DNA from: Tausonia pullulans | Lineage: Eukaryota; Basidiomycota; Tremellomycetes; Cystofilobasidiales; Mrakiaceae | Reading direction: 5' to 3' | Length of the DNA: 64,000 bases | Assembly: GCA_951802195.1 (NCBI GenBank) | Contig: OX637635.1 | Location: 496,001 to 560,000, forward strand | In this document: positions 60,476 to 62,605 of the stretch, piece by piece | Layout of the letters: each line of letters opens with the position of its first letter | How positions within the stretch are numbered: position 1 is the first letter of the stretch | Made by a program: the position numbers and the translations under genes | Notes under the pieces: model-generated | What the model was told of the DNA's origin: nothing | The model's input: only the letters and a program-made list of their open reading frames with translations | Database searches by the model: none

Positions 60476-61946
60476 TTTGATGATGAGTTAAGGAGGTAGG
60501 AAAGAGAAGGGAGGTGGAAAGGGAAAACGGGGAGTTGGAGAGAGAGGTGATTGTGGTTGGTAGAAAAAGGAGAGCAGCTGAGCGAAGGGCGAGGTCGTTC
60601 GTTGGAGCGAACTCGGCCGGAGGCAGCGACTTCGGCGACCCGGCCCGCGCCCTCCGAGCGGTTCCCCACCCCAGATCTCGGTTCGTTGAGTGAAACTCGT
60701 TCGGTCTTCTCCTGGTCAGTTCTTCATTGGCGATCATCTTATCATCCTGGTGTGGCAGCTCGCTTTTTGCGTCCTTCAGCTCTTACCTGTGCTCATCCAT
60801 CTCGAGCCCGTCTGTCTCAGCTCAGCGCACATGCGAGCCAGCGGCAGCCGCCCCAGCTCTCACCTGTCTTCTGACCTTTGATCCGCTCGCTCATAACGCG
60901 GTTCATTTCGACTCTGGCCGCCGCATTCCCCTTCGGCCCGTGAATCGACAGGAGACAGGTCTTTCCCTCCCCTCCCCTTCCATTCTTCCCCTCAAACCGC
61001 GTCAGCTCTCCGTCCGGGGGAGGAACTGATATGCCTAGAGCCTGCCTGCTGGGCCTGTGCGTGCGGCAAGGAAGAGTGTGACGCCGAAGACAGAGTACGA
61101 CGAAATAGCTGGGCTGCATTGAGTGCGCGTTTGAGGGCTTTATTTTTTTCATATACCAGGGTCTTGCGGGACACCCCGCCTCGGCTCCGCACCTGCAATA
61201 TTGTTATCTCTTCTCTCGACGCGCTTCGGATCTGCGCGGTTCGCCTGCCCCGCCTGCTCCTTGCTCGACCAGCATTCCCTCTTCATCATTCCTCCTTGGC
61301 CACATCATCCCATGCTCTTTACTTTAATATTCCTTTTTCCTCGATCGTCACCTGACGCACGCTGTCTGCTTTCTCATTCTTCTCGTACTCCCAATTGATC
61401 TCGCTCCTCATCGAAAGGGGCTCGGTTCATCGTATGTTTTGTTCTGCACTCTGACTATCATTTAAACACGACAAACCTACCCAAGACCTACAAGCGAGCC
61501 AGTGCCACCTCCAGCACATCTGTTGCACTCCACTATCAACGCCTCTTCCCTCATCCACCCCCTCATCCACCCCCTCATCCACCCCCTCATCCACCCCCTC
61601 ATCCACCCCTTCAGCCATCGATATAAGGCCCAATTATAGCACCAAAGCATCGAATAACCCGCATATTCAGAGTACGATAACCGTAACAATGGAAAGGGCC
61701 TTAAGCATTATTTGTGTTATAAGCATCGAGTCACCGATGATGTAAAAGCCATTCGGGCGAGGCTGAAGTGATCGAAGATGAAGAAAGGCATCAAGCGAGG
61801 CTGATCTGAGTATCAGAGGGCGCACGCAGACCAGACATAGACGGATGTAAAACGTATGCCAGAATTCTTTGCATGTTCGACTTTGCTCATGGCGAAGGAC
61901 TCACCAACAAATCGCCTGTTAGGTGTTTTAAAGCATTGCTAGATCT
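60476..61946. other. Intergenic, dehydrogenase promoter and flank of the tRNA locus
   Basis: About 1.5 kb without a recognised protein gene. It becomes AT-richer than the rest of the window from about 61280. A 12-bp minisatellite lies at 61551-61609. A weak C/D-snoRNA-like arrangement near 61735-61806 is not accepted. Confidence 0.45.
61551..61609 (+). repeat. 12-bp minisatellite, five units
   Basis: Five near-perfect copies of tcatccaccccc in head-to-tail order, about 340 bp upstream of the tRNA locus. Confidence 0.92.
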
Positions 61947-61959
61947 TCCGAGCAACCTC

Positions 61960-61970
61960 GGTTCGAGTCC
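61960..61970 (+). promoter_or_regulatory. B box of the permuted tRNA gene
   Basis: ggttcgagtcc fits the RNA polymerase III B-box consensus GGTTCGANTCC exactly. It lies upstream of the A box, the reverse of the normal order. Confidence 0.85.
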
Positions 61971-62034
61971 GGGCACTGCCTTGCATGACCAGGATGAAGT
62001 CTCAGGACGCATCCCAGCCAAGCATAAGGCGGTG

Positions 62035-62045
62035 TAGTATAGATG
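62035..62045 (+). promoter_or_regulatory. A box of the permuted tRNA gene
   Basis: tagtatagatg fits the A-box consensus TRGYNNARNNG at every position. It begins 75 nt downstream of the start of the B box. Confidence 0.8.
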
Positions 62046-62082
62046 GTTAGTACACTCGGTTCTGAGCATACCTTTGGTCCTA

Positions 62083-62087
62083 TTTTT
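62083..62087 (+). terminator. RNA polymerase III T5 terminator
   Basis: A run of five T, 18 nt after the 5' half of the tRNA, in the position expected for termination of a transcript that begins upstream of the 3' half. Confidence 0.7.
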
Positions 62088-62605
62088 GCCCCCTCTGTCT
62101 CTTTGAGTCTCGTCGCAAGCACGTGAAGCCATTCGAGATAATTCATGAGCATTTATCTCCACTAGCTCCTCGAGCGCTCTCCTCCTTGAAGGTACGTAAT
62201 CCCGGACTGGTCTGTGGCAAGCCAGAAATACGGGGCATGGCGCAGAGAACGATGACAGACTTGTAGCGGGCTGCAGCTTGCTCGCGTAAGACGACGGAGC
62301 TAGAGCGTTTATCTCTCTGTCTTTTGGCTGGCTCACTCATCAGCCAGCAGCCACACACCGTCCTACGTGCTCTACCCTCACATTGAGAGAGGTCTTCCTA
62401 TTTCCGCCCATAGTCGGTAGGCTACCCTTTTCGAGGACGAATGTTCATATCGCGACCGATCGGCACTCTCCCTCTCTTCGGCCATCATTCCAAATATCAC
62501 ATCATCGAATTCCAGGAACAACCCTCTCCCTGAATTCCCCTATTCACACAATGGCAGCAAGAGAGAAACGAGGCCCAGCCTCGCCGCCTTTCCTCGCCCA
62601 CGCGC
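62088..62605. other. Spacer between tRNA locus and EMP24
   Basis: About 520 bp including the EMP24 3' flank. No second tRNA half, complete tRNA or conserved exon is visible. Confidence 0.45.

What the first reader, a model, noticed from the sequence alone, without database searches (positions are those of the whole stretch)
61947..62065. Permuted tRNA-Gln(CUG) gene in a fungal genome
The two halves of a flawless tRNA-Gln(CUG) lie in reversed order, 3' half at 61947-61981 and 5' half at 62028-62065, separated by 46 nt. Acceptor strands ggcggtg and cactgcc pair fully (one G-U) and anticodon strands ctcgg and ccgag pair perfectly. All invariant nucleotides are present, which argues against decay. 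The break is at 37/38, the canonical eukaryotic tRNA intron site. Seen directly: order, pairing and conserved bases. Known: permuted tRNA genes occur in Cyanidioschyzon, prasinophyte algae and Thermofilum and mature through a circular intermediate. I am not aware of a fungal case. Inferred: origin by tandem duplication of an intron-containing tRNA-Gln gene and loss of the outer halves.
Basis: partly seen in the sequence, partly recalled or inferred. Interest (0 to 1): 0.96.

Follow-up and report, generated by a model that had tools for sequence, protein, structure and literature searches.

The report
Fungal glutamine tRNA genes, halves swapped
In this fungus, the genes found for the tRNA that reads the glutamine codon CAG have their second half written before their first, so the RNA probably has to be closed into a circle and recut to work, an arrangement known so far mainly from single-celled algae.

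Summary
At 61947-62065 the 3' half of a tRNA-Gln(CUG) precedes its 5' half; joined at 37/38, ARAGORN calls tRNA-Gln(ctg). The genome (23.9 Mb, 21 contigs) holds 21 intact loci of this kind on seven contigs. A 73-nt query and separate searches with each half found no ordinary-order gene, except by reading across two neighbouring permuted loci on C18. Fifteen loci have the window's halves; six carry two other acceptor stems with matched changes in both halves (four double changes). Outside the acceptor stem and position 45 the halves do not vary, while leaders and trailers largely do. All 21 have TTTT or longer starting 8-18 nt after the 5' half and none inside the gene. A 22nd copy is decayed. 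The genome looks fungal, with intron-bearing tRNA genes and a T4/Trl1-type RNA ligase domain. Best reading: a functional, multicopy, apparently sole-source family of type II permuted tRNA genes. A bulge-helix-bulge motif is only weakly supported, no TATA box stands out, and expression could not be tested.

The parts
61907..61946 (+). Presumed leader (start unknown). Leader bases -6 to -4 (AGA, 61941-61943) could pair with anticodon-loop bases 33-35
   Evidence: Register test: -3 to -6 is the best of 30 registers for pairing with bases 32-35, at least 3 of 4 pairs in 9 of 16 leaders. Transcription start not known; leader-trailer pairing no better than mismatched controls.
61947..61981 (+). 3' half of tRNA-Gln(CUG): nucleotides 38-73; B box GGTTCGAGTCC at 61960-61970
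   Evidence: Sequence; ARAGORN on joined halves; identical in 15 of 21 loci.
61982..62027 (+). Spacer of 46 nt bridging nucleotides 73 and 1; presumed to be cut out by RNase Z and RNase P
   Evidence: Spacers are 4-46 nt at the 21 loci; no T4 run in spacer or halves. Cutting is inferred.
62028..62065 (+). 5' half of tRNA-Gln(CUG): nucleotides 1-37; A-box region from 62035; anticodon CTG at 62062-62064
   Evidence: Sequence; ARAGORN on joined halves; identical in 15 of 21 loci.
62066..62087 (+). Trailer ending in TTTTT (62083-62087), presumed Pol III terminator
   Evidence: T4 or longer starting +8 to +18 at 21 of 21 loci; background 346 of 18280 control positions in the window.
61713..62096 (+). 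Extent of the duplicated segment shared, inverted, with C16:563504-563888 of the same genome, which holds a second permuted copy
   Evidence: blastn 98.2% over 385 bp.

Best explanation
This is one of 21 functional, circularly permuted tRNA-Gln(CUG) genes of a fungal nuclear genome, which together appear to be the only source of that tRNA. Inferred pathway: Pol III transcribes leader, 3' half, spacer, 5' half and trailer and stops at the T run. The halves fold into a cloverleaf in which the spacer bridges the acceptor ends and leader and trailer leave from the anticodon loop. The tRNA splicing endonuclease cuts after A37 and before T38, a Trl1-type ligase joins 37 to 38 to give a circular pre-tRNA, RNase Z and RNase P remove the spacer, and CCA is added. 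Shown here: gene order, pairing, conservation limits, compensatory changes, T runs, no ordinary copy at the sensitivity used, a ligase domain, other tRNA genes with 37/38 introns. Inferred: transcription, cutting, circularisation, use in translation.
For: 21 loci on seven contigs, all 3'-half first, both orientations. The 73-nt query at E up to 10 matched 42 stretches: the 21 5' halves and 21 3' halves of these loci. 3'-half pattern, up to 3 mismatches: exactly the 21. D/anticodon-arm pattern: the 21 plus one decayed copy. D-arm pattern: the 21, the decayed copy and one unfetched place on C3. Across 16 distinct loci every column of the halves is invariant except four acceptor pairs and position 45; leader columns are 0.21-0.60 identical and trailer columns 0.26-0.66 apart from +3 (1.00) and +13 (0.88). 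Four acceptor pairs change on both sides among three types; 63 of 63 pair cells standard. T runs 21 of 21 after, 0 of 21 inside. Decayed copy recognisable: 14 differences, mispairs in all four stems. Ligase domain; other tRNA genes with introns at 37/38. CAG 42 against CAA 13 in five stop-to-stop frames with Pfam matches, so a CAG reader is needed.
Against: No RNA data. Leader-trailer pairing does not beat mismatched partners (17 real, mean -25.57; 272 mismatched, mean -25.48 kcal/mol), so a full bulge-helix-bulge is not shown; six of the nine leaders with a good central helix share AGAT. A and B boxes are in inverse order and no TATA box stands out (0 of 17 at -55 to -25, 3 of 17 at -30 to 0). 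Covariation rests on three distinct sequences; 13 of 500 shuffles reach it. The unconstrained RNAfold minimum of the joined tRNA is not the full cloverleaf. A very diverged ordinary gene is not excluded: the Rfam tRNA search scored only 63 of 897 candidates.
Confidence: 0.87

Rival explanations
1. The permuted copies are a non-functional dispersed repeat or pseudogene family, and an ordinary tRNA-Gln(CUG) gene exists that is diverged or missing from the assembly.
For: Copies spread as segments with their flanks: 385 bp at 98% on C16, up to 1.1 kb at 93% on C18. One copy is clearly decayed. No expression data. The searches used patterns and words related to the permuted halves, and the assembly's completeness is not stated.
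Against: Halves unchanged while flanks diverge, compensatory acceptor changes, T runs at 21 of 21; no ordinary copy by any of four searches.
Confidence: 0.07
2. Halves of neighbouring loci are used in ordinary order, as one tRNA gene with a very long intron or by joining of separate transcripts.
For: ARAGORN with long introns allowed reads a tRNA-Gln(ctg) across neighbouring C18 loci with 'introns' of 763 and 1125 nt.
Against: A T run follows each 5' half within 18 nt. Loci on C1, C14, C17 and C12 stand far from any other copy, and the spacer bridging matched acceptor types is local: each locus pairs with itself. The third ARAGORN Gln call, in L055, joins an unrelated 5' part to a permuted 3' half.
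Confidence: 0.03
3. The genome is algal, where permuted tRNA genes are already known, and not fungal.
For: Size and contig number would also fit prasinophytes (recalled). C. merolae has a permuted tRNA-Gln(CTG) at 37/38 (PMC3978253 Table 1).
Against: MCM2 exon: 285 bits for the top chains (recalled as S. cerevisiae), 216 or less for the rest. Eleven Zn2Cys6 domains over cut-off, 0 of 14 prokaryote controls. The UBA1 exon hardly discriminates (312 against 309 bits). The 18S search did not complete.
Confidence: 0.02

Closest known systems
Type II (37/38) circularly permuted tRNA genes of Cyanidioschyzon merolae, including tRNA-Gln(CTG) (PMC3978253 Table 1)
   Same: 3' half before 5' half, break at 37/38, same isoacceptor for Gln(CTG), short spacer (31 bp there), ordinary conserved bases, no encoded CCA, T stretch after the 5' half and none between the halves.
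   Different: Red alga with 11 permuted genes, at most two per anticodon; TATA-like sequence upstream of most; BHB motifs predicted at the junctions. Here 21 dispersed copies of one isoacceptor, no evident TATA box, BHB only weakly supported.
Type II permuted tRNA genes of prasinophyte green algae and the Bigelowiella natans nucleomorph (PMC3978253 Table 1)
   Same: 37/38 junction in most; spacers from 5 to 64 bp in that table.
   Different: Isotypes listed are Ser, Leu, Cys, Arg, Asn and iMet, none Gln, one gene each; green algal lineages.
Permuted tRNA genes of the green alga Auxenochlorella (PMC12633428, passages)
   Same: Missed by tRNAscan-SE at first; halves in reverse order.
   Different: Green alga; details are in a supplement not read.
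Permuted tRNA genes of the archaeon Thermofilum pendens (PMC3978253 Table 1 and section 5)
   Same: Reversed halves; sole genes for their anticodons.
   Different: Break at 59/60, additional 37/38 introns, CCA encoded (section 10), single copies.
Ordinary tRNA genes with 37/38 introns in the same genome
   Same: Same break point, presumably the same endonuclease and ligase.
   Different: Halves in normal order with the intron between them.

Membership tests
Circularly permuted tRNA genes, type II (37/38) | 3' half upstream of 5' half on the same strand, short spacer at the acceptor ends | tested here: met
   21 of 21 loci, spacers 4-46 nt.
Circularly permuted tRNA genes, type II (37/38) | Joined halves form a complete tRNA with the conserved bases | tested here: met
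   ARAGORN tRNA-Gln(ctg) on joined halves; stems 7/7, 4/4, 5/5, 5/5.
Circularly permuted tRNA genes, type II (37/38) | Junction between nucleotides 37 and 38 | tested here: met
   A37 and T38 are present at 21 of 21 loci; variation begins at the next base on either side.
Circularly permuted tRNA genes, type II (37/38) | T stretch downstream of the 5' half, none between the halves | tested here: met
   21 of 21 and 0 of 21.
Circularly permuted tRNA genes, type II (37/38) | Bulge-helix-bulge-like structure at the junction | tested here: inconclusive
   Best register at -3 to -6 with at least 3 of 4 pairs in 9 of 16 leaders, but no leader-trailer pairing beyond mismatched controls.
Circularly permuted tRNA genes, type II (37/38) | TATA-like sequence upstream (described for C. 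merolae, not for all) | tested here: not met
   TATA in 0 of 17 distinct leaders at -55 to -25, 3 of 17 at -30 to 0, 1 of 17 at -85 to -55. This is a trait of C. merolae genes and not a defining feature of the class.
Circularly permuted tRNA genes, type II (37/38) | Expression through a circular intermediate; charged mature tRNA | not testable with these tools
Ordinary intron-containing tRNA gene | 5' half before 3' half | tested here: not met
   Reverse order at 21 of 21 loci; ordinary order only across two neighbouring loci, 763 and 1125 nt apart.
tRNA pseudogene | Broken stems or lost conserved bases | tested here: not met
   Window locus intact; contrast C18:231633-231764 with 14 differences.

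The most novel reading that the evidence does not exclude
A fungal lineage has fixed the permuted arrangement for a whole major isoacceptor: all its tRNA-Gln(CUG) genes, amplified to 21 copies with three acceptor-stem types and without an evident TATA box, are permuted, so reading of CAG depends on making and recutting circular pre-tRNA.
Probability: 0.8. Interest if true: 0.9.

Novelty: new member of a known kind. Interest (0 to 1): 0.83.

Why it matters
The literature I could search places permuted tRNA genes in algae and one archaeon, and its 2014 review says that most eukaryotes do not contain them (PMC3978253). A fungus with a whole CAG-reading family in permuted form would show that the state can arise in opisthokonts, be amplified, and become the apparent sole source of a major tRNA. 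It offers a way to ask how Pol III starts when the B box precedes the A box, how the splicing endonuclease handles a leader and a trailer in place of one intron, and how RNase P and RNase Z open a circle through a spacer as short as 4 nt. It also suggests that routine tRNA annotation can miss an entire isoacceptor.

Tried and rejected
Misassembly: rejected as a general explanation, since 21 loci on seven contigs in both orientations show the arrangement. Decay: rejected for the 21; one true decayed copy was found. Chance: 0 in 30 simulated windows. Leader-trailer helices that I saw by eye did not beat mismatched pairs. Remnants of lost outer halves: 34 tests at 17 distinct loci, lowest shuffle fraction 0.055, two more at 0.155. 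A-box-like motif in the last 100 bases before the 3' half: one locus only. TATA: see membership test. A CATCAA motif occurs at -55 to -25 in 6 of 17 distinct permuted leaders and in 0 of 81 ordinary upstreams, but the leaders are partly related. Other permuted isotypes: a strict scan of 70 records (199 kb with overlaps) and a loose scan of 83 records (238 kb with overlaps) found only the Gln type; the eight loci were scanned with ARAGORN only; most of the genome was not scanned. Ordinary anticodon arm TTCTGATCCGAG: 107 places with up to 1 mismatch against 56 for the reversed pattern, 100 listed; only 8 were examined, without any tRNA. Nuclear tRNA-Gln(UUG): not located. Exact search of the viral and prokaryotic collections with a 23-mer: 0 matches in each. 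Protein search with the RNase H2C frame: 3 unnamed relatives. Alignment A2 had some wrongly cut ends and no count rests on it. Covariance model R1 was never used in a search. The 18S search did not complete.

Full report
Observation. The sequence at 61947-62065 is as described: a tRNA-Gln(CUG) 3' half (61947-61981), a 46-nt spacer and the 5' half (62028-62065). ARAGORN and Rfam at gathering threshold see nothing there. When the halves are joined at 37/38, ARAGORN calls tRNA-Gln(ctg) with four stems. The unconstrained RNAfold minimum of the joined 73-mer is not the full cloverleaf. Simulation gave 0 strict permuted cloverleafs in 30 windows of 64 kb, both strands.

Genome-wide picture. The window lies in a genome of 23,855,473 bases in 21 contigs. 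A search with the local 221 bases, and fetching of the places found, gave 21 loci, all permuted: C1 (1), C11 (3), C12 (3), C14 (1), C16 (2), C17 (2), C18 (9). Fifteen have halves identical to the window's; five have the acceptor stem GGTTGCA/TGCGACC and one has GGTGGCA/TGCTACC. Spacers are 46 nt (2 loci), 29 (9), 24, 23, 11, 8 (4), 7, 5 and 4 nt.

Ordinary copies. The joined 73-mer at E up to 10 matched 42 stretches, the 21 5' halves and the 21 3' halves of these loci. A 24-nt 3'-half pattern with up to 3 mismatches gave exactly the 21. A D/anticodon-arm pattern gave the 21 plus a decayed permuted copy at C18:231633-231764. A D-arm pattern gave the 21, the decayed copy and one place on C3 that I did not fetch. 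Of 107 places of the uninterrupted anticodon-arm 12-mer (up to 1 mismatch; 56 for the reversed control), 8 were examined, including all 5 exact ones, and none holds an ARAGORN tRNA. The Rfam tRNA search scored 63 of 897 candidates and is no census. With long introns allowed, ARAGORN reads a tRNA-Gln(ctg) across neighbouring permuted loci on C18, with 'introns' of 763 and 1125 nt, and a third in L055 that joins an unrelated 5' part to a permuted 3' half. I take these as artefacts, because a T run follows each 5' half. A very diverged ordinary gene is not formally excluded.

Evidence of function. (1) Over 16 distinct loci (5 near-duplicates of the 21 left out) every column of the halves is invariant except the two sides of four acceptor pairs and position 45. 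Leader columns -20 to -1 are 0.21-0.60 identical; trailer columns +1 to +20 are 0.26-0.66 apart from +3 (1.00) and +13 (0.88). The change comes exactly at A37 and T38. (2) Among the three types, acceptor pairs 3:70, 4:69, 6:67 and 7:66 change on both sides and 63 of 63 pair cells are standard; no double change remains when partners are slid by 1-3 columns. Only three distinct sequences underlie this, and 13 of 500 shuffles reach it. (3) T4 or longer starts at +8 to +18 after the 5' half at 21 of 21 loci and lies inside the gene body at 0 of 21; the same window test is met at 346 of 18280 control positions. (4) The decayed copy has 14 differences in its halves and mispairs in all four stems. 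(5) CAG outnumbers CAA 42 to 13 in five stop-to-stop frames with Pfam matches; such frames may include some non-coding ends.

Machinery and host. Ordinary tRNA genes here carry introns at 37/38, for example Lys(CTT) 27 nt and Asp(GTC) 61-62 nt as called by ARAGORN, which implies a splicing endonuclease. An RNA_lig_T4_1 (PF09511) domain lies in pieces at C6:341837-342704, three of four pieces over cut-off; that it is the Trl1 ligase is inferred. The MCM2 exon matches the top chains at 285 bits and others at 216 or less, and 11 Zn2Cys6 domains pass cut-off against 0 of 14 control prokaryotes. The UBA1 exon hardly discriminates (312 against 309 bits). Which PDB chains are yeast or human is recalled. 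The place within fungi was not determined.

Mechanism. I propose the route described for C. merolae: one transcript, cutting at 37/38, ligation to a circle, removal of the spacer. The splice-site structure is the weak point. Anticodon-loop bases 32-35 pair best with leader bases -3 to -6 among 30 registers, with at least 3 of 4 pairs in 9 of 16 leaders and 4 of 4 in three; but six of the nine share AGAT and are not independent, and constrained folds pair leader and trailer no better for true partners (17, mean -25.57 kcal/mol) than for mismatched ones (272, mean -25.48). The third trailer base is A at 21 of 21 loci, which I cannot explain. TATA occurs in 0 of 17 distinct leaders at -55 to -25 and 3 of 17 at -30 to 0, so promotion is unknown.

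Spread and origin. Copies moved with their flanks: the C16 pair shares 385 bp at 98% in inverted orientation and C18 loci share up to 1.1 kb at 93%. Other loci have unrelated leaders and spacers with identical halves, so the permuted state is old relative to many of the copies. No convincing remnant of lost halves was seen, and the tandem-duplication origin remains a hypothesis.

Literature. Of the review PMC3978253 I read part 1 of section 4, section 5, part 1 of section 10 and passages elsewhere. It counts 34 permuted tRNA genes in algae and one archaeon, lists C. [quoted passage not shown] The green alga Auxenochlorella was added later (passages of PMC12633428). Searches for 'permuted tRNA' (45 papers, 40 listed; from 2016, 26 papers, 25 listed), with 'fungi' (11 papers, 9 listed) and in other wordings showed no fungal case in titles or abstract openings; passages of PMC8450103 and PMC4090602 name none. 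Most subscription journals are not held, so priority is not established.

Verdict. The finding is real and understated: a new member of the known kind 'type II circularly permuted tRNA genes', in a kingdom for which I found no report, as a multicopy and apparently sole-source family.

Noticed in passing
C18:231633-231764 of the same genome (L054): A decayed permuted tRNA-Gln copy with 14 differences in the halves, mispairs in all four stems, a 59-nt spacer and anticodon reading TTG.
   Followed up: yes
the 21 permuted loci, third base after the 5' half (window 62068): The third trailer base is A at 21 of 21 loci while its neighbours vary; no explanation.
   Followed up: partly
genome G000, nuclear contigs: No nuclear tRNA-Gln(UUG) gene was seen among the sampled tRNA genes; the only TTG gene is on C21, an 18.8-kb contig that looks mitochondrial. 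It may be diverged, permuted differently or outside the sample.
   Followed up: partly
C6, about 673-1374 kb; C11:102-104 kb; C16:558-564 kb; C15:468-488 kb: Many tRNA genes cluster on C6, and tRNA genes often occur in inverted pairs or palindromic blocks.
   Followed up: no
C18 loci L003, L055-L057: ARAGORN names SeC(tca) and Tyr(gta) for genes that I read as tRNA-His(GUG) with 37/38 introns of about 12 and 70 nt; the reading is mine and was not tested further.
   Followed up: no
window 61419-61543: A stretch just upstream of the permuted gene matches places near permuted loci on C12 and C14 at about 80% identity over 103-112 bp, possibly a dispersed repeat.
   Followed up: no
window 61556-61612: Short tandem repeat of a CCCCCTCATCCA-like unit upstream of the gene.
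   Followed up: no
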